From Patescibacteria group bacterium (GTDB lineage Bacteria; Patescibacteriota; Gracilibacteria; Absconditabacterales; Absconditicoccaceae), in contig JAGOPC010000001.1 of the NCBI GenBank assembly GCA_017992195.1, forward strand, positions 48,143 to 112,142: 64,000 bases of DNA, given 5' to 3'. Shown here in pieces: positions 2,569-45,983 of the stretch (its first letter is position 1; every line of letters starts with the position of its first letter). The notes beneath the pieces were generated by a model. The model had not been told where the DNA came from. It did not search any database and saw only the letters and a program-made list of their open reading frames with translations. A program made the position numbers and the translations under genes.

Positions 2569-2940
2569 TCAATTGTTTATTAAAAGATTATTTATGGTCG
2601 TTACGTTAGGCGCTAGGAACGCTAGCTTTTCTTTATCAAGCATGTAATGTTCTTGTTTTCTTATTTCCGTATTGTTACGGTTCCATCTTTGTATACTGAT
2701 TCCATCGCTGGAAAGCTTTTCAATGAGCTCGTCAACTAGCGTCGACGGATCAAAGAATGACCCTACCAGTGGTGCCGCAACGACTTTTCCTCTTATGCCG
2801 TTCGGGAAGTTCCATGGATTGATAAGATCGTAATTGCATTCATACTTTATTTTGTTTGCTTCTTCGGGATCTATAGATATCCTGAATTTTATACCAATTT
2901 TGGCAAAAGCTTGGGCGAGTGTGAGATATGTGTGATTCAT
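2569..2940 (-). CDS. Hypothetical protein whose frame ends at UGA next to a terminator
   Basis: 123 residues up to the TGA at 2569-2571. I do not recognise the family. The protein is mixed charged and hydrophobic (NHTYLTLAQAFAKIG at the N-terminus), with no signal peptide or membrane segment. It is a single-gene unit: a consensus promoter lies about 20 bp upstream and an intrinsic hairpin starts immediately after the TGA. Since UGA is Gly elsewhere in this window, the frame should continue for 46 codons through the hairpin to a TAA at 2431, into the antisense of rsmA. That extension lies beyond the predicted RNA end. No internal TGA occurs. Either UGA stops here, or the gene was recently acquired, or the mRNA is non-stop. 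Confidence 0.6.
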   Translation of the reverse strand: MNHTYLTLAQAFAKIGIKFRISIDPEEANKIKYECNYDLINPWNFPNGIRGKVVAAPLVGSFFDPSTLVDELIEKLSSDGISIQRWNRNNTEIRKQEHYMLDKEKLAFLAPNVTTINNLLINN

Positions 2941-2960
2941 ATGTGTTTTTCGTTTTTTGT

Positions 2961-2988
2961 ATTATAGAAATATGCCGACATATGTCAA
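2961..2988 (-). promoter_or_regulatory. Sigma70-type promoter, 16-bp spacer
   Basis: Minus-strand TTGACA (2988-2983), 16 bp, then TATAAT (2966-2961): both hexamers are perfect. The -35 box overlaps a palindrome, GACATATGTC. The predicted start site leaves a leader of only about 14 nt before the ATG at 2940. Confidence 0.85.
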
Positions 2989-3000
2989 CATGTTGTGCTG

Positions 3001-4296
3001 CTATTGTATAAGTAACTTAAAACTCTTCTTCCCCTTCCTCAGCAAAGCGACTTTCCCATTGATAAGGTCGTCTTTTGTTATCTCGCGATCTATTGCTTCT
3101 ATTTTTTGCTCGTTAAGATAGATAGATCCCGCTTCTACCGCTGTCTTCGCATTTCATTTTGATGATTCGAGTTGTGTTGCTATGATAGCATCTACAATGC
3201 TCATTGGAACTGTTTCAAGCTGAATTCCTCCCGTCTCATGCTTCAAAGCTTCGATCTCGCCTTCGTTCATATTCTTAATAAGCTCTAACTTGTTCTCACT
3301 ACCAAACAACACTTCAGTTATTTTCTCAGCCGCCTCGACAGCCTTCTTTCCAAAAATCGTCTGTACCACATAGTGGGCGAGTTGGCGCTGACCAAATCTT
3401 GCGGCGGCATCTTTATTGTGCTCAGCTACGATAGTCGCTATCTCATCGAGACTTAGCAATGTGAATAGCTTCAAAAATCTTTCTACGTCCTCGTCGCTCG
3501 TATTCATAAAGTATTGGTAAACGTAGTATGGCGAATTCTTCTTAGCGCTAAGCCAAATTGCGTTTCCTTCTGACTTTCCGAATTTCTTTCCTGTGGAGTC
3601 TAGGATCAATGGTCAAGTCATACCAAATACCTCATCGCCACATTTCTTTCCAGTCAATTCGACTCCTGTAACGATATTTCCCCGCTGGTCAGAGCTGGCG
3701 ATCTGTAAATTAACTCCTTTGTGCGTGTGCAGCCAGTAGAAATCATACCCCTGGAGGAGCATGTAACTAAACTCAGTGAAGGAGATCGACTGTTCAGGGT
3801 CTTCGATTCTCTTCTTGACTGTCTCCTTTGACATCATCTGATTGACAGTTATGTACTTGCCAACCTCTCTGAGAAATGTTGAGAACGACATATCTTTATA
3901 GAACTCCTGATTATTCACTACCTCAAAGCTAAAATCTTCCCCTGAAAGTTCTTTCAGATTGCCTAAAATAAATCCCACCTGTTCGGTAATCTTTGAAACA
4001 TTATACTCGAGCGTCTCTTGTGAGAGGAGCTGTCTTTCGCTGTTCTTTCCGCCCGGATCTCCGATCATACCAGTCTCACCACCTACGATAAGCACGAGAT
4101 GATTTCCGCGCTTCATAAAATTTACCGTATTCATGATCGCGGTAAAATTCCCGAGATGAAGGCTGTCAGCGGTTGGGTCGCAGCCTAGATACAATGATTG
4201 CCCGCCTCACTCATACAGATCAAATAACTTATCGCTCGTAAACTGGTACAAAAACCCACGTTTCTCAAGCTCGTCGCGCAAATGCATCGTTCTCAT
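3001..4296 (-). CDS. tyrS: Tyrosyl-tRNA synthetase
   Basis: 431 residues. Class I synthetase that charges tRNA-Tyr. The HIGH-like motif is DSLHLGN (residues 45-50) and the KMSKS-like loop is KKFGKSEGN. A C-terminal S4-like RNA-binding segment follows (NAKTAVEAGSIYLNEQKI). The frame crosses three TGA codons, near residue 30, at 3610-3612 (GMT-G-PLIL) and at 3154-3156 (SSK-G-NAK), and ends at TAG. The start is the ATG at 4296, which gives the expected N-terminal helix before the YLGCDPT strand. Length matches the TyrS family. It lies 52 bp downstream of the hypothetical gene ending at 4349, on the same strand. Confidence 0.95.
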
Positions 4297-4348
4297 ATTA
4301 TTGTTAAAGTACCTCTACAAATACGGAATTAGCGGATGAAAACAAGCT

Positions 4349-5122
4349 TTAGTCGATCATCCGTTTATTGATCATTTCGATTCTATCCGGACCGATATAA
4401 AATCTGTGTGATACCTCGCTCTCGTGGTCTATGGCTTTTTTAATATTATAGGTGAAGTGTGACGTTTGAGTGAGATACCGGATAATAAACTCAGCAACGA
4501 CACCCTTGTCGTACGCAGCATAATCCAAGCCATCTTTTTTCGATAGATTATCCCTTATACTCATAGCTTTCAAAAGTTGCTTCACATCATTGTCGTCACT
4601 CTTTGCCTCAAAAAGTTCATCATGAGAGATAAGGCTCTCAGGGCTAAGATATATGCGCGATCCCTCGAGGGTAAGATTATTGTTAATGGTACGAAGCATG
4701 CGTGAAAGGAAACTTTTGAGATCTTGTCTGGACCGCTGCAGCAAGGGATAGAGATAGTCGTTAATGAGATCGACGAGGTCTTCATTCGCAAGAAAGCAGT
4801 AGCTTTCAGTCGCGTATAAAAGCTGCTTAATATATTTTGTATCACTGTAAGGAGTATTGAGAGCAAGAAGTTTCTTCAGCCGGCGATAATAATAAGATCT
4901 ATATACCCCTTGCTCTATTCTGTCGTCGTTCCTTTTTACTGACAGTCTTCGCTCTTTTTCCTTGTCGCGAAAAGTTTTAAATGTCTGCTTGAACTCTCTC
5001 AGTCTTTCTGGATCTGCTTGTAGCACCTCTAAAATATCTGCGCTTATGGCGAGCTTACAGCGCTTTCATTCAGTATCGATATAAGAAATAGGTTTTTCTA
5101 AGAAGCGAGGGGAGTTTTTCAT
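4349..5122 (-). CDS. Hypothetical soluble alpha-helical protein
   Basis: 257 residues. Not recognised. The start is the ATG at 5122. The frame crosses one TGA (DTE-G-KRC) before the stretch that would begin at a GTG under the standard code. The protein is rich in Arg, Lys, Asp, Leu and Tyr, predicted mainly helical, with a Tyr/Arg-rich patch (YRSYYYRRLKKLL) and no membrane segment or signal. It ends in TAA. It lies 52 bp upstream of tyrS on the same strand and is probably co-transcribed. Divergent from trmD. Confidence 0.7.
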
Positions 5123-5148
5123 AAGAGGGTTATAATGAGTTTGATTCC

Positions 5149-5176
5149 TTGATTTAAGAGGATTATTCGCTATAGT
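5149..5176 (+). promoter_or_regulatory. Promoter for trmD
   Basis: TTGATT (5149-5154), 16 bp, TATAGT (5171-5176). It lies 36 bp before the trmD start codon. Confidence 0.6.
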
Positions 5177-5211
5177 CTATAGTATATTTACTTTACGAAA
5201 GATAGCAATAG

Positions 5212-5907
5212 ATGCGTTTTCACATCGTCTCGCTCTTCCCGGAAATATACGACTCTTTTCTCAAAACATCTTTAATGAACAAGGCGATCGAGGGCAGCTT
5301 AATCTCCTTCTCTTTTACCAATCCACGCACATTTTGTCCAGATAAACACCAACAGGTTGACGACGAGATCTACGGCGGAGGAGCGTGAATGCTCATGAAA
5401 GCAAAACCACTCATTGACGCGGTAGAATCAATTATTGAAAATAAAAAATTAACAATTAAAAATTCTGCATGGAGAATTGTATTTATGAGTCCGTCGGAAA
5501 AAATATTCAACCAGGGGGTTGCCTACCAGTATGCCGGTGATCTACAGAATATTATTTTTGTGTGTGGGCGTTATGAGGGCATTGATTATAGGTTTGAACA
5601 ATATATGCAGGATAAATATGGAGATTACTTTGAAAAAATGTCGCTGGGCCAGTTTGTTACATTAGGAGGCGAATTGCCATCGATGGTGGTCATAGAGGCT
5701 GTCGCAAGGCTCGTTCCATGAGTGATCAAAGAGGAAGCCAGCCACCTTCTGGAAAGCTACGATCCGGCCCAGAACATGAGCAACCTCGAATATCCGCAAT
5801 ATACTAGACCGGAGGAGGTCTACGGATTGAAGGTGCCGGAGGTTTTGCTGAGTGGTCACCATGCAGAGATTGAGAAATGGAGGAAGGGGCAGACGAAGAG
5901 CTTGTAA
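5212..5907 (+). CDS. trmD: tRNA (guanine37-N1)-methyltransferase TrmD
   Basis: 231 residues. SPOUT-class enzyme that methylates G37 of tRNAs reading CNN codons, preventing frameshifts. The start [16 protein letters not shown] is typical. The conserved YGGGxGM motif is at residues 54-60 with Gly59 encoded by TGA (5386-5388). The knot region shows CGRYEGID and [20 protein letters not shown], whose last Gly is a second TGA, and the C-terminus has QYTRP and LLSGHH. Length is close to the family norm. Ends in TAA and is followed 48 bp later by a separate gene with its own promoter, which overlaps the trmD stop codon. Confidence 0.95.
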
Positions 5908-5929
5908 TAGCGCTTACAAAGCGTAATAT
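5902..5929 (+). promoter_or_regulatory. Promoter overlapping the trmD stop
   Basis: TTGTAA (5902-5907), 16 bp, TAATAT (5924-5929), about 27 bp before the ATG of the Cys-rich gene. The -35 box overlaps the trmD TAA. Confidence 0.55.
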
Positions 5930-5955
5930 TGCAATGTAAACAAAATATTCTAGAT

Positions 5956-6321
5956 ATGTGTAAATCCACTCTTTTTGAAGTTGACGACCTGCCGCAGAGT
6001 GCGTTGGCAGCTGGAACAGTATTGAAAAGGTGTGATTGCGGCTGGTTTTCCCAGGGCGCATTTCCTAAACATACTGTTGAGCATGATGGCAGAGTTTATA
6101 TGCAATGTGAACAATGCGGCGGTATCCTTTCGTGCGAAGGTTGCAATGGCCCCATTGAAGATGCCGACAATTGTGGCCGTTTTTGCGCCCGACATGCGGA
6201 GGACGGTGATCCCCTAACCGTTACTTGCACTTGTTGTCATAGGTGTAGGGGCAATTGCATAGCAAGTATTACGGAGAATCCCCTTGTTTGTACGGATTCA
6301 GAAGGAAATGTCGTCGTGTGA
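5956..6321 (+). CDS. Small Cys-rich, probably metal-binding protein ending at UGA
   Basis: 121 residues from the ATG at 5956 to the TGA at 6319-6321. It contains about 16 Cys, largely as CxC or CxxC pairs (CDCG, CEQCGG, CEGCNG, CTCCHRC), plus His, consistent with several zinc sites. The family is not recognised and there is no signal peptide or membrane helix. No internal TGA occurs. An intrinsic terminator starts 30 bp after the TGA. If the TGA is read as Gly the frame stays open through the terminator and far into the antisense of the next gene, which is implausible. Single-gene unit with its own promoter. An upstream in-frame TTG (5929) is a less likely start. Confidence 0.65.
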   Translation: MCKSTLFEVDDLPQSALAAGTVLKRCDCGWFSQGAFPKHTVEHDGRVYMQCEQCGGILSCEGCNGPIEDADNCGRFCARHAEDGDPLTVTCTCCHRCRGNCIASITENPLVCTDSEGNVVV

Positions 6322-6350
6322 AATTGCTCTAACGAATTTGAAAAGTTTTT

Positions 6351-6378
6351 CTCTCTGACATGTGCAGAGAGTTTTTTT
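6351..6378 (+). terminator. Intrinsic terminator
   Basis: Stem CTCTCTG (6351-6357) with CAGAGAG (6365-6371), 7-nt loop, then seven T (6372-6378). The stop codon of the convergent reductase gene lies in the T run. Confidence 0.85.
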
Positions 6379-41399: not shown

Positions 41400-42284
41400 A
41401 TGTTCGACTCAGATCTTTTAACTCCTGCCGATACCAGCAGTATATTTGATGGCATGGAAATTAGAAAGGATTGGCATCAAAACCAGCGATATTTTTCTAT
41501 TACCGATACTATCAAAGCGCTTGTATGAGATGCAAGGCCTAAACAGTACCGGACCGATCTCAAAACCCAATTGAAAAGAGAAGGAAATGAGTTGTACGGG
41601 AAAATCGTACAACTGAAAATCACTGCTTCAGACGGGAAAAGATACTTAACAGATACATGCAACACAGAAACACTATTGCGCATTATTCAGTCTATACCAT
41701 CGCCTAAAGCAGAGCCGTTTAAGCAATGGCTCGCGTCTTTATGAAATGCAAATATAGAAGAATTTAACGACCCCGAACTATGAATACATAGGGCTAAAGT
41801 GAGAGCAATCCAGGCTTATAGAGCTAAAGGATTTCCCGATAAGGATATACAATCTAGAATGCAAGGCATTGAAGTAAGACGAGATTTTACCAAAGAACTT
41901 CACGATAGATGAATAGAATGAAAATGATATGGCATATTAACAAATATAGCTTCTTATTGATGGGCGGGTAAGAATGCATCAGAATATAAAAACTTTAAAT
42001 GACTATCACCTACAGATAATCTAAGAGATCATATGACAAGGCCTGAACATTTGCTGACTGCATTAGCCGAAGAAACAACAACTCAGATCGTAAAAAATAA
42101 AGACTTAAAGGGATTCGATAAAATACAGAGCGCCGCTTTTGAATGAGCCAAGGTCGCACAAAAAGCTAAGGAAGAGTTTGAAAAGACTACTGGCGGGAAA
42201 GTGGTTTCTGATAACAACCGTCTTACGGAAAGACAAAAAAAGCTCAGAGAAAAGAAAACAATTAAGGACAAAGGAAAGTTCTAG
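41400..42284 (+). CDS. BRO-N domain protein, UGA-rich
   Basis: 294 residues with nine in-frame TGA codons, the densest UGA use seen here together with the membrane genes. N-terminal BRO-N pattern: RYFSITDTIKALV-GDARPKQYRTDLKTQL and LLRIIQSIPSPKAEPFKQWLASLG (cut), typical of DinD and phage/virus BRO proteins. The C-terminal half (GIEVRRDFTKELHDRG, then RDHMTRPEHLLTALAEETT) resembles DinD-type proteins. BRO-N is a DNA-binding domain, so a regulator of the adjacent retroelement is possible. Ends in TAG, 63 bp before the promoter of the target gene. Confidence 0.75.
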
Positions 42285-42346
42285 AAGTGGTCATTTTACT
42301 GAGCGAAACTACACTTTCATAGCGAGGAAAGTTGTTCATGGTCTAC

Positions 42347-42374
42347 TTGACAAATAGCATTATTTGTCTATTAT
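42347..42374 (+). promoter_or_regulatory. Promoter of the DGR target gene, with operator-like dyad
   Basis: TTGACA (42347-42352), 16 bp, TATTAT (42369-42374). A perfect inverted repeat GACAAATA-gcat-TATTTGTC (42349-42368) spans the -35 edge and the whole spacer. ATG is 39 bp downstream. Confidence 0.8.
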
Positions 42375-42412
42375 TAAGCAATAATATTTACCTTATCCTT
42401 TCTCGCATTACT

Positions 42413-43171
42413 ATGGCACCAATTAACTGAAACTTTTCTCCAAGTGGTCATTCATTATCGATCGATATAGATACTCCTGAAAAAGTAGACAAGGCGTTTT
42501 CTACTATTACAGACGTAGAAGCTCAACTCATAGAGACTTTTATCGCTAAAAGAAAAGCGACTAAAGCTCCTGCTGTTGAAGTAGTAACCGATCTCACTCA
42601 GAGAAGAACTGATATCCTGAACCGGAATAAGCAAAACTACGATAAGGTATGCGAGGAAACAATGCAGCTTGTACAGACATGTGAGGAGACAGACGAGTAT
42701 ATAAAGCTCGGCAAATTAAAGCTTCGCAAAAAGCCGCTTACTATCAATGTAAATCATCCAAAAAATAAGGATAAAGATGTATTTACCTATGAGTGGGATA
42801 ATTACTCTGGTGGTAAAGATACGATGGTAGGTATCAGACAGAAAGTATTGAACGATGACAAAAACTCTATGCACGATGTGGTAGAGGATGAAATAAAGGC
42901 GCAGGACGGATATAGACAAGCAACTAAGGCAGACTTTGATAGTATGCTTTCAGAGTTGCCTTGAAAAAACGAAGAAGAAAAGCTCCTCGCCCTACAGATA
43001 GTAACAGGTTGGTTTGGTTGGGGAATGCTTGACGCAGTAGATACAAAGAAGGGTAAAGTCCTGTCTCGTTCTTTTGTTAGGTTGCATAGCGACGACAGTA
43101 GCAGGGACTTCAACACTAACGATCATCAGATTAATACTGGTTCTGTTTTCCTCGTCCAGGACTGCGAATAA
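42413..43171 (+). CDS. DGR target (variable) protein
   Basis: 252 residues, two TGA codons (near residue 6 and at 42962-42964). The last 36 residues are encoded by the variable repeat. The C-terminal half (GYRQATKADFDSMLSELP, then TGWFGWGMLDAVDTKKGKVLSRSFV and the ending TGSVFLVQDCE, cut here) fits the C-type lectin/FGE-like fold used by DGR targets. Ten residues differ from the template: Arg223, His225, Ser226, Asp227, Ser229, Ser230, Asp232, His238, Ile240 and Thr242. No signal peptide or membrane helix, so probably cytoplasmic. Unrecognised N-terminal part. Strong promoter upstream, terminator downstream. Confidence 0.88.
43057..43165 (+). repeat. DGR variable repeat (VR)
   Basis: 109 bp at the 3' end of the target gene, stopping six bases before its stop codon ends. 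Aligns without gaps to the TR 377 bp downstream. Twelve mismatches: six A-to-G, four A-to-C, one A-to-T, all read as template adenine changes, and one C-to-G near the 3' end in the initiation-of-mutagenic-homing region (43160). Confidence 0.95.
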
Positions 43172-43247
43172 ATTCGGTACTTTTTCTCTTTCGGCGTCTC
43201 GCTGGATGCAATGAAGTAAAAAAAATGACTGGGACAATATCGACGCA

Positions 43248-43284
43248 GACACACTTTTCAAGGAAAAGTGTGTCTCTTTTTTTA
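43248..43284 (+). terminator. Strong hairpin after the target gene (terminator, or DGR cruciform)
   Basis: Stem GACACACTTTT (43248-43258) with AAAAGTGTGTC (43264-43274), 5-nt loop, followed by T-rich TCTTTTTTT. It should end target transcription. DGRs of Bordetella phage type also need a DNA hairpin just downstream of the VR; this one lies 82 bp after the VR and might serve that role. Confidence 0.8.
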
Positions 43285-43351
43285 TAATGGGAACGCCAGC
43301 GTCTTATATTCTATGGACTATAAGAGAGAGCATATGCAGTCCAGTCATTCA

Positions 43352-43408
43352 CTGACCTGCTAAAGCAGGTTAGTAGTAAAAGATCATAGCATCGGTTACG
43401 ATACTATG
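43352..43408 (+). ncRNA. Structured leader of the template-repeat RNA
   Basis: Two adjacent hairpins precede the TR: CTGACCTGC-TAAA-GCAGGTTAG (43352-43373) and CATAGCATCG-GTTA-CGATACTATG (43385-43408, one mismatch). Structured RNA flanking the TR is needed for cDNA synthesis in studied DGRs, so these are likely part of the functional TR transcript. Its ends are not known. Confidence 0.55.
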
Positions 43409-43433
43409 ACAAACTATCAGCAATGACTTTAGT

Positions 43434-43542
43434 AGTCCTGTCTCGTTCTTTTGTTAAATTGAATAGAAACGACAATAACAGGAACTTCAACACTAACGAT
43501 AATCAGAATAATAATGGTTCTGTTTTCCTCGTCCAGCACTGC
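43434..43542 (+). repeat. DGR template repeat (TR)
   Basis: 109 bp, 377 bp downstream of and in the same orientation as the VR. Read in the VR frame it holds 11 Asn codons (AAY), the usual design that yields many amino acids on adenine mutagenesis without creating stops. The 3' end matches the VR except for C at 43537. It lies upstream of the reverse transcriptase. Confidence 0.95.
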
Positions 43543-43596
43543 ACAGGAGGTCGGTCTTACATGATCGGCTTCTTTCTTATTTTCACGCTCTATACC

Positions 43597-44766
43597 ATGA
43601 ATGATATATTACTCTATGATCTCTTTGCCGCCTATTATGAAGCAAGAAAAAATAAGAGAAACACTCATAGTCAGCTTGAATTCGAGCTAGAGTTCGAATC
43701 ATCTCTTTTTCAGCTCTCAGAGGAATTATTCCATTGAACATATGCCATAAGTAAGAGCATTTGCTTCGTTATCTCCGACCCTATCAAAAGGGAAATCTTT
43801 GCCAGCGGTTTTCGTGACAGAGTAGTGCATCATCTTATCTATAATTATATTTATCGATACTTTGATAGCCATTTTATCCACGACAGCTATAGCTGCAGGA
43901 TAGGGAAAGGGACTCACTATGGGATCAAAAGAGTAAACCGCTTTATTCGTTCTTGTTCAAAAAATTATAGCCATGATTGTTATATACTGAAACTTGATAT
44001 AAAGGGCTTTTTTATGGCTATTGATAAAGAGAAACTAAAAAATCTGCTCACGAAGAGTATTGCTTCAGAAGATTTTGCAAATAGTAATCCTGCCGTAGAT
44101 ATAAACTGGCTGTTGCCTCTGATATATCAGGTCATCAATCACGACCCTACGAAAGACTATCAATTTAAGTGAGACAGAAGCGCTTATGAGGGATTGCCTT
44201 TGGATAAAAGTCTGTTTTACTGATGAGGAAGCAAAGGACTGCCTATAGGCAATCTTACAAGCCAGCTCTTCGCGAATGTCTATCTTGATCCGCTTGATAA
44301 GCGAATGAAATATACGCTCGGGACAAAATATTATGGGAGATACGTTGATGATTTTATAATAATTCATGAAAGCAAAGAGTTCCTGGTAGATCTTATTCCT
44401 CAGATCAAAGTATTTCTTGAAACAGAGTTGTGATTAACGCTCCATCCAAAGAAGATATATCTTCAACATTATACGAAGGGAGTGAAATTCCTTGGGGCAT
44501 ATATCAAACCTTACAGAACCTATATTCACCGCAGGACAATAGGCAATTTTAAAGCAAAGCTCATAAATCAAAAAACATATGATAATGATCTGCAAAAACT
44601 AAGGGCGGTGGTCAACTCTTATCTTGGCATGATGAGCCATCGAAGGACTTATAAGCAAAGAAAAAAGTTATGCACTTTGCTTGATAAAGCATTTATATCT
44701 ACTCCTGATTTTACCAAAGTTACATTAATCCCTCATGGTGCTCGCAGAATATCTCCCGGTCTATAA
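43597..44766 (+). CDS. DGR-type reverse transcriptase
   Basis: 389 residues, five TGA codons. All RT motifs are present: REIFASGFRDRVVHHL (motif 1-2), KLDIKGFF with catalytic Asp134, LPIGNLTSQ at residues 216-223, YVDD at 249-252, LHPKKIYLQHYTKG and VKFLGAY. The GNLTSQ form (SQ where group II introns and retrons have SP) marks DGR enzymes. The start is the ATG at 43597, giving LLYDLFAAYYEARKNKR as in other DGR RTs; the frame is open upstream across the TR, but that part is not protein-like. It copies TR RNA with adenine errors. Confidence 0.93.
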
Positions 44767-45082
44767 AGCAAGTTATGACATGACGCTCGCATTATTTCAT
44801 GTCATCAAAAAATATCCCAAAGAATTTAAGTATACGCTCGGCGAACAGATGAAAAAAGATTCGTTGGCGCTTATAGCAACCATCTATAAAGCCAATTCAA
44901 TTCTTGAGAGAAAAACGATCATTATAGAAGCAAGAGGGCACTTAGAAAGTGTAAGAGTACTACTTCGTCTTTCTAAGGATTTACATACGATCCCGTTAGA
45001 TAAGTTTGTCGACATTAATGGCTCGTTAGAAACCATCTCGAAACAACTTACCGCGCGGAATAGAAGCATTAAGTCTATGTAA
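44735..45082 (+). CDS. avd: Avd-like accessory protein of the DGR
   Basis: 115 residues, no TGA. Four-helix bundle of the Avd / S23 ribosomal intervening-sequence family: LPVYKASYDMTLALFHVIKKYPKEFKY (cut), GEQMKKDSLALIATIYKAN, ARGHLESVRVLLRLSKDL and GSLETISKQLTARNR. Avd forms a basic pentamer that binds the RT and template RNA. The start overlaps the RT end by 32 bp, so the two are translated from one mRNA. It lies after the RT, whereas in Bordetella phage it lies before the TR. Its stop overlaps the convergent gene by 8 bp. Confidence 0.85.
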   Translation: MVLAEYLPVYKASYDMTLALFHVIKKYPKEFKYTLGEQMKKDSLALIATIYKANSILERKTIIIEARGHLESVRVLLRLSKDLHTIPLDKFVDINGSLETISKQLTARNRSIKSM

Positions 45083-45983
45083 ACTCTGCGATCAACTGAT
45101 ACGCAACCAACAGGAACAAGAAGATTGTCAAACAGATGAAGAAAATAGTGATGATGATTGACTTTGCGTCTTTGACTTTTGCTTCGTCACCCTGCGCTGT
45201 GATATATCTGACTCCTCATCGGATGAGTGCGAGCACCATTCCCGCGCCGAGTACATACGCAGCGATTCTTGCAGTATTCACCAAGAACTCCTGCATTCTT
45301 GAACCGAAGTTCTGCTGTTGCGCGATAAAGAAGATGAAGTCGATGATCTTGATAAGCACCAGTGCGACGATCACATTGATGATGCCCGTTTTTGCCGCTT
45401 TGATCTTTGATTCTTCTTCGAGCGCCCTCATAAACTGAAATCCATAGTAGAGGAACATGATGATCGCATAGAAAAATGCAAATCACTTCATAAATGACAG
45501 AACCTGAAAGAGCAGGTTATTTTGCAAATTACTTAAAAGTCCTTGCGTCCCCTGTACGGTTCCTATTTTCAAGGCTGTTCCCAGTATTCGCGTTACACCC
45601 CATACTAAAAATCCACCAAATAATATATAGAGAAAGCTTCTTCTCACTTTCTTCTGTGCAGCCTCATCTCCTGACTTTTGCATCATATCGATACCTATCT
45701 GCGCGAGATAGAGAACAAGTATCCCTGTCATCACGACCCTGAGAGCTCTTCGGATGATTGCGTTATCATTGAGAGGAGAGAACATATTGTAGACATTGTC
45801 TTTGAGCGAGCTATTTGCGCTGATACCAAATGTGCCCGGTGAGATCAGCGTCTCTCCCGACCCTGTATCGTCTTTCAGCAGAGGATTGACTATCTGGCCG
45901 TCAAAAGTAGGCGGTACAGCGAAGGCAACATTAAGCCCAAGAATCGCACCGAGTGATAATGTAAGTACTATTTTTTTCCACAT
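45075..45983 (-). CDS. Membrane protein with VirB2/TrbC-like pilin modules
   Basis: 302 residues across two TGA codons. Signal peptide (LTLSLGAILGLNVAFA), then two pairs of hydrophobic helices. The second pair, AAYVLGAGMVLALIR-GGVRYITAQGDEAKVKDAKSIIITIFF (cut; G is TGA), has the GDEAKVKDAK linker typical of VirB2/TrbC-like conjugal pilins in these phyla. The first pair has SGDEAAQKKVRRSFLYILFGG, a similar linker. So it looks like two fused pilin modules. Probably envelope-spanning or part of a secretion or pilus apparatus. Ends in TAG, overlapping avd by 8 bp. Confidence 0.75.

What the first reader, a model, noticed from the sequence alone, without database searches (positions are those of the whole stretch)
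42347..45082. Complete diversity-generating retroelement in a UGA = Gly genome
Seen: target gene with VR at its 3' end, TR 377 bp downstream, a reverse transcriptase with the DGR-specific GNLTSQ motif and YVDD, and an Avd-like protein overlapping the RT end. Known: DGRs mutate a target by copying a TR with errors at adenines, and they occur in CPR lineages. Inference: the organism hyperdiversifies this protein, probably a ligand-binding protein. The order target-TR-RT-Avd, with Avd last, is not the Bordetella phage order.
Basis: partly seen in the sequence, partly recalled or inferred. Interest (0 to 1): 0.93.

Follow-up and report, generated by a model that had tools for sequence, protein, structure and literature searches.

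The report
Gene-mutating cassette with structured RNA leader
A small bacterium that very likely reads the stop codon UGA as glycine carries a complete cassette predicted to rewrite the end of one of its own genes at random; a second public copy of that protein differs, apart from two places apparently translated by another code, only at sites where such rewriting would strike, and the cassette's template follows a conserved RNA predicted to fold and likely to guide the copying enzyme.

Summary
Window 42413-45082 is a complete diversity-generating retroelement (DGR): target with VR, TR 377 bp downstream, DGR-type reverse transcriptase, Avd. All 11 VR/TR mismatches in the 102-nt core lie at TR adenines (p 1.6e-6). 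A second public protein (P0001) equals the target outside the VR except at two TGA codons (Trp there); in the VR it differs at 12 residues, all in TR codons with adenine (p 5e-16). So the element has very likely diversified in nature.

Beyond the finding: a predicted three-way-junction RNA ends 6 nt before the TR. Nineteen of 20 pairs show compensatory change over 24 sequences; Rfam 15 has no match. Of 36 non-duplicate hits checked, 36 lie upstream of the RT on its strand; BPP-1 has none. The RT starts 54 nt after the TR, against 144 nt in BPP-1, and a terminator-like hairpin lies between. One relative has a second cassette (target, leader, TR, terminator) without its own RT, suggesting action in trans. 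Avd last is real and uncommon (11 of 71). Some relatives' templates contain sense UGA, but code-specific relaxation of TR codons is not shown. A new variant of a known kind.

The parts
42347..42374 (+). promoter-like site (TTGACA-16-TATTAT) before the target; prediction only
   Evidence: 11 of 12 positions; the scan finds 14 sites against 12.3 expected, so by itself weak
42413..43171 (+). target gene, 252 aa under code 25 (two TGA codons), VR at its 3' end
43057..43165 (+). variable repeat (VR), ending in the IMH-like GGACTGC
43247..43275 (+). perfect 13-bp hairpin plus T run, 81 nt after the VR: terminator of the target and/or VR-side stem-loop
43338..43430 (+). structured RNA leader (predicted three-way junction). 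P1 43344-43349 with 43422-43427; P2 43351-43357 with 43368-43374; P3 43388-43394 with 43399-43405; conserved AGTAAAAGAT at 43375-43384
43434..43542 (+). template repeat (TR), ending in the IMH*-like GCACTGC
43545..43574 (+). hairpin (12 pairs) with T-rich tail directly after the TR, terminator-like
   Evidence: z -3.6
43597..44766 (+). DGR reverse transcriptase, 389 aa, five TGA codons
44735..45082 (+). Avd, 115 aa, overlapping the RT end by 32 nt

Best explanation
This is a complete diversity-generating retroelement in an Absconditabacteria (SR1) relative: its reverse transcriptase, with Avd, is predicted to copy a template RNA likely made of a folded leader, the TR and a terminator-like hairpin, to miscopy adenines, and to have the cDNA replace the VR at the end of the target gene. 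Shown from sequence: adenine-restricted TR/VR differences, a second natural VR on a target otherwise equal but for two TGA codons, a leader with strong base-pair covariation that abuts the TR, and a G/C difference at the 3' end (VR GGACTGC, TR GCACTGC). Inferred: the leader recruits RT-Avd and its closing helix P1 stops reverse transcription at the 5' edge of the TR; the 3' hairpin ends the template RNA; the G/C difference keeps copying one-way, as IMH/IMH* do in BPP-1. Inferred from one relative (G048): the template RNA can serve in trans, because that genome has a second cassette of target, leader, TR and terminator without an RT of its own. The ligand and benefit are unknown; my guess is a variable binding surface on a small protein in which I see no signal peptide by eye.
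For: A-specificity: 11 of 11 core mismatches at TR adenines, p 1.6e-6. Natural diversification: P0001 and the window target differ at 14 of 252 residues; two are TGA codons here (Gly by code 25, Trp in that record) and 12 lie in the VR, all 12 in the 19 TR codons with A (p 4.8e-16); 34 of 34 VR residues of P0001 are reachable from the TR by A->N. RT and Avd. Leader: RNAalifold on 8 sequences, 17 of 20 pairs compensated; 91.9% of cells paired against 33-56% when slid, 0 of 500 shuffles as high; a MAFFT alignment of 24 of the 31 best hits, not fitted to the structure, 19 of 20 pairs compensated; the window copy alone folds the same way, z -5.6. Place: 36 of 36 non-duplicate hits checked (weak ones up to E 0.73 included) lie on the RT strand, 28-1149 nt upstream of the RT; P1 ends 2-11 nt before the detected TR in 11 of 15 loci. 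Genome-wide: one hit in the own genome; 17 of 353 class genomes, all 17 among the 66 with a DGR RT. Hairpin after the TR in 9 of the 9 SR1 loci where a TR was located (in four the TR end was set by eye). RT-less cassette: 17 of 17 mismatches at TR adenines, p 2.5e-8; G048 has one RT match at E up to 1e-20, on another contig.
Against: No activity was measured. The leader was not found in 3 of 11 SR1 loci (L066, L072, L075), in BPP-1 or two phage DGRs, in nine IMG/VR loci with a related RT, or in most Bacteroidetes, Chlorobi and proteobacterial relatives, so it is not universal even among RTs about 50% alike. In three of 15 loci 57-80 nt, and in one 378 nt, lie between P1 and the detected TR (TRs with an indel are cut short by my finder). 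Outside SR1 the hairpin after the TR is patchy: z below -2 in 4 of 9 f14/f22 loci and 8 of 32 others. Recruitment and RT stop are inference. The window Avd shows no BLASTP similarity to the BPP-1 Avd. G048 is a binned genome; contig C123 could be misbinned.
Confidence: 0.9

Rival explanations
1. An ordinary DGR in which the upstream RNA is only a regulator of transcription (attenuator or riboswitch-like leader) and template priming works from a short 3' spacer as in BPP-1.
For: A terminator-like hairpin follows the TR and a T-run hairpin precedes the leader; a leader that ends at the TR could control read-through into the RT.
Against: P1 ends within 2-11 nt of the TR in 11 of 15 loci, and the leader is kept in a cassette that has no RT downstream to regulate. 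The distance from TR to RT is 26-156 nt in the leader-bearing loci measured except L118 (431, where Avd lies between), against 144 nt in BPP-1; so most, not all, are shorter.
Confidence: 0.25
2. A decaying DGR: once active, VR now frozen.
For: The two paralogs of the target in the genome have no TR match; two VR residues that differ from the TR (R223, H225) are shared by both known VRs; 123 of 147 relatives have no RT match.
Against: RT, Avd, TR, leader and target are all intact, and two VRs on otherwise nearly identical targets differ at 12 residues.
Confidence: 0.06
3. The VR/TR pair is a plain duplication with chance adenine bias, and RT/Avd are unrelated neighbours.
For: Only 11 core mismatches in the window itself.
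Against: p 1.6e-6; the same anatomy with many adenine mismatches in relatives (46 loci counted); P0001.
Confidence: 0.01

Closest known systems
BPP-1 DGR of Bordetella phage (mtd-avd-TR-brt), the type system
   Same: DGR RT (27% identity), an Avd-family protein, TR/VR with adenine-only differences, IMH-type 3' marker, VR at the 3' end of the target
   Different: There avd lies 5' of the TR and a 144-nt spacer separates TR from brt, which folds to recruit RT-Avd (PMC12875486, passages). Here Avd is last, TR to RT is 54 nt, and the conserved structure lies 5' of the TR; the leader model does not match BPP-1 with filters off
DGRs of Patescibacteria/CPR in the global survey of Roux et al. 2021 (PMC8144416, passages)
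   Same: cellular DGRs in CPR genomes; CPR-restricted and mixed RT clades described there
   Different: The main text has no hit for 'Avd', 'genetic code', 'stop codon' or 'Gracilibacteria' (supplements not seen); this RT sits with UGA=Gly RTs inside a mixed CPR/Bacteroidetes lineage
Thiohalocapsa PB-PSB1 DGRs (Dore et al. 2024, PMC10907252, passages)
   Same: targets probably served in trans by a TR and RT elsewhere; incomplete DGR loci
   Different: In the passages seen, the trans cases are VRs matching a TR of another locus; the G048 cassette has its own leader, TR and terminator and lacks RT and Avd

Membership tests
Diversity-generating retroelement | DGR-clade reverse transcriptase | tested here: met
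   SQ in motif 4 (IGNLTSQ) is a recalled DGR mark. A tree with non-DGR RTs was not built
Diversity-generating retroelement | near-identical TR and VR whose differences lie at TR adenines | tested here: met
   11 of 11 in the core
Diversity-generating retroelement | VR at the 3' end of a protein-coding target | tested here: met
   one codon lies between the VR end and the stop codon
Diversity-generating retroelement | Avd or another accessory protein | tested here: met
   sequence similarity to BPP-1 Avd itself not detectable
Diversity-generating retroelement | IMH/IMH* difference at the 3' ends | tested here: met
   G/C at 43160/43537; the same G/C swap in L067, L068 and L275, not in L069 (G/A) or L070
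Diversity-generating retroelement | natural VR diversity with constant rest of gene | tested here: met
   one other natural allele; TR constancy not seen because P0001's DNA is not held
Diversity-generating retroelement | C-type-lectin-like or Ig-like target fold | tested here: inconclusive
   no Pfam/PDB match, AlphaFold pLDDT 39
Diversity-generating retroelement | mutagenic retrohoming shown by experiment | not testable with these tools
   -
BPP-1-type cassette | avd 5' of TR | tested here: not met
   Avd after RT
BPP-1-type cassette | long structured spacer between TR and RT | tested here: not met
   54 nt here against 144 nt in BPP-1; only a 12-pair hairpin
any Rfam 15 family | covariance-model match of the leader | tested here: not met
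   no match up to E 1 in 42300-45100
UGA=Gly code (table 25) | in-frame TGA at Gly positions and a UCA-anticodon tRNA | tested here: met
   2 of the 5 RT TGA columns have a Gly majority in 40 standard-code RTs; tRNA identity judged by anticodon only

The most novel reading that the evidence does not exclude
A lineage of DGRs shared by UGA=Gly bacteria, other CPR and some Bacteroidetes uses a self-contained template RNA whose RT-Avd platform lies upstream of the template, the mirror image of BPP-1. Bounded by this leader and a terminator, the RNA works in trans, so a genome can carry extra RT-less cassettes that borrow one enzyme, and reassigned UGA lets glycine codons sit inside the mutated template.
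Probability: 0.45. Interest if true: 0.78.

Novelty: new variant of a known kind. Interest (0 to 1): 0.62.

Why it matters
DGRs are among the few natural systems of targeted hypermutation, and the mechanism I could find described in detail is that of one phage element, BPP-1 (PMC12875486, passages). A conserved, compact 5' leader gives a tag by which template RNAs, including RT-less ones, can be found from sequence, and a handle for testing trans-acting mutagenesis in laboratory strains. The second allele is natural evidence that a DGR of an uncultured UGA=Gly lineage has been active, and the host code sets up a test of how a changed genetic code reshapes hypermutation, since A->N cannot make a UGA stop there.

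Tried and rejected
Code effect on TR codons: TRs with an AGA or TGA codon are 8 of 23 in families f1, f14 and f22 (taken as UGA=Gly by family) against 1 of 23 in others (Fisher p 0.022), but AAA/AAG codons, which still yield stops in both codes, are also commoner (17 of 23 against 8 of 23), so base composition can explain it; related TRs are not independent, and L113, L133 (G150) and L105 show 0-1 TGA in the RT. Rows dropped before that count: L112, L148 and L157 (frame doubtful) and second pairs of a locus. L148 has one AGA in its doubtful frame.

Target fold: AlphaFold from three sequences failed, so no fold search was run. Target homologues: only P0001 and P0002 in 5.8 billion proteins.

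Phage origin: best-ranked phage RT 43%, IMG/VR 49%, no target relative in IMG/VR; the flanks look like housekeeping genes (EF-Tu, ribosomal proteins, GatA-like; names recalled from reading, no search run). I regard it as chromosomal.

Paper searches. No listing showed me a structured leader 5' of a DGR TR, but I saw only listings and passages; Paul et al. 2017 is not held, and Wu et al. 2018, seen only as a cited reference, was not looked up. So 'not in print' is not claimed.

Full report
What is there. The window holds target 42413-43171, VR 43057-43165, leader 43338-43430, TR 43434-43542, hairpin 43545-43574, RT 43597-44766 and Avd 44735-45082, all on +. In the 102-nt core all 11 mismatches are at TR adenines, p 1.6e-6. 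One non-adenine difference, G in VR against C in TR, marks the 3' end (GGACTGC/GCACTGC). The same swap is in L067 and L068 and L275; L070 does not show it and L069 has G against A there.

Proteins. The RT matches RVT_1 and the PHROG RT at 1.5e-98. In the PDB it scores 108 bits with 8ub7 against 39 for the next, named a maturase reverse transcriptase; 8ub7 matches BPP-1 brt over its whole length. Avd matches bAvd, DivGenRetAVD (below cut-off) and the PHROG Avd. The target has no Pfam or PDB match, and only weak rows (E 0.04-0.06) in NCBIfam and PHROGs.

Host and code. Neighbours look like housekeeping genes. Close RTs belong to records named Absconditabacteria or SR1 (L171 and L190; the RTs there are identical to those of the same-family genomes G035 and G013). 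TGA is sense in many frames; a 74-nt tRNA with anticodon UCA is present.

Natural variation. The only near relative of the target in the protein collection, P0001, is on a 3910-bp contig (the window's contig has 112142 bases; the cluster has 4 members). Of 252 residues 238 agree. Two differences are TGA codons here and Trp in that record, very likely another translation table; its DNA was not seen. The other 12 lie in the VR, all in TR codons with A (p 4.8e-16), and 34 of 34 VR residues of P0001 can be reached from the TR by changing adenines only. I read this as recent mutagenic homing in a sister lineage. The TR of that lineage was not seen.

The leader RNA. Aligning the space between VR and TR of five SR1 loci showed conservation next to the TR. 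Eight sequences gave a three-way junction without prompting: 20 pairs, 17 with compensatory change; 48 cells changed on both sides against 16.4 in shuffles, 0 of 500 as high; slid versions pair 33-56% of cells against 91.9%. Model R1 matched 21 rows in 81 sources and 24 rows in 80 sources at E up to 1. After removal of the window, seven duplicates (L171, L172, L185, L190, L213, L226, L230) and one further L204 row, 36 of 36 lie on the RT strand upstream of the RT; nine of these are weak (E above 0.005). A second alignment by MAFFT, not fitted to the model, used 24 of the 31 hits and gave 19 of 20 pairs with compensatory change; left out were L120, L127, L178, L189, L206, L210 and L217, which have long loops, no aligned P3, or a broken 3' half. 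The window copy alone folds to this structure, z -5.6. Rfam 15 has no match. Controls: nothing else in 161 kb of own-genome loci and window; none in BPP-1 and two phage DGRs; nothing better than E 0.76 in 0.78 Mb of viral loci, 80 of 89 of them holding the motif. Class-wide, with stricter filters, 17 of 353 genomes have it, in families f1, f14 and f22, all 17 with a DGR RT; 17 of 18 hits are on a contig with an RT match. It also occurs, with weaker scores (25-44 bits), in records named Staskawiczbacteria, Falkowbacteria, Moranbacteria, Elusimicrobia, Bacteroidales and Neomarinimicrobiota. It was not found in L066, L072 and L075 of 11 SR1 loci.

Anatomy around the TR. In the window 6 nt lie between P1 and the TR; in 11 of 15 other loci it is 2-11 nt. 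In the nine SR1 loci where a TR was located (of 11; not in L071, L073) a stable hairpin follows it (z -2.3 to -6.6; TR end by eye in L066, L072, L075, L076). Elsewhere it is patchy: z below -2 in 4 of 9 f14/f22 loci and 8 of 32 others. The RT starts 54 nt after the TR here, about 32-82 nt in the nine SR1 loci, against 144 nt in BPP-1.

An RT-less cassette. G048 has a second leader on contig C123. It has its own target (254 aa), VR and TR (17 of 17 mismatches at TR adenines, p 2.5e-8) and a terminator-like hairpin. No RT or Avd match beyond chance lies in the 11 kb fetched, and the only RT match in G048 is on C84. Its TR holds two AGA and one in-frame TGA codon, the TGA kept in its VR: UGA, very likely glycine, inside a diversified stretch. 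L115, L118 and L132 also have TGA codons in the TR.

Order and history. Of 122 distinct RT loci (open frame of 280 aa or more), Avd is before the RT in 60, after it in 11, on the other strand in 10, not found in 41 (sought with the window Avd in the fetched stretch). 'After' are WIN, L066-L070 and L075 (SR1), L115, L120, and two far ones at 25-27% identity (L126, L136). Three SR1 loci differ: L071 and L073 have it before, L072 has none found. On a quick tree of 102 RTs, 15 RTs (nine SR1, four f14 Gracilibacteria, one f22, and L208, itself with five TGA codons) form a group (SH-aLRT 94, not starred) inside standard-code lineages; other UGA=Gly RTs fall elsewhere, 7 changes at the least, 4 forced by starred branches. 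I infer several entries of DGRs into UGA=Gly genomes. TGA-rich RT genes could not leave for standard-code hosts intact.

How it most likely works. RT-Avd binds the leader, starts near the TR 3' end, copies the TR with errors at adenines, stops at P1, and the cDNA replaces the VR, with the G/C difference giving direction. Copying, recruitment, stop and trans action are inferred; the sequence facts above are shown. Confidence in the DGR is 0.9; in the leader as RT-Avd platform and RT stop about 0.5.

Noticed in passing
L066 (UBA5124, G019:C9), oriented about 2830-3175: The target seems to read straight into the TR place (C-type marker, hairpin, then RT) and no leader is found: a VR-by-TR recombination deletion or an assembly collapse.
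   Followed up: partly
G000:C25:6291-6665 and G000:C41:16066-16254 (L034, L035): Two paralogs of the target (40% and 38%) in the same genome; the C25 one has a similar C-terminal end. No DNA match to the TR and no RT match in the stretches fetched.
   Followed up: partly
window 41400-42284: BRO-N gene, phrog_15286 (1.9e-69), weakly like DinD/DdrC, just upstream of the DGR; relatives in only two other DGR loci searched (L242, L189).
   Followed up: partly
L068 oriented 3287-6355: A DGR target of 1022 aa with weak, sub-cut-off AAA-type ATPase matches and the VR at its C-terminus.
   Followed up: no
L208: A contig of a MAG named Rickettsiales has an RT with five TGA codons and the leader, inside the UGA=Gly RT group: misbinned, or another recoded host.
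   Followed up: no
L072 (G008:C13:18493-18592): A TR-like stretch whose peptide resembles the window's TR peptide, in another genus, without a detectable leader; the genome search gave no good second copy.
   Followed up: partly
L076 (G019:C3): Leader whose 3' half looks replaced, followed by a TR-like stretch with an in-frame TGA and a hairpin.
   Followed up: no
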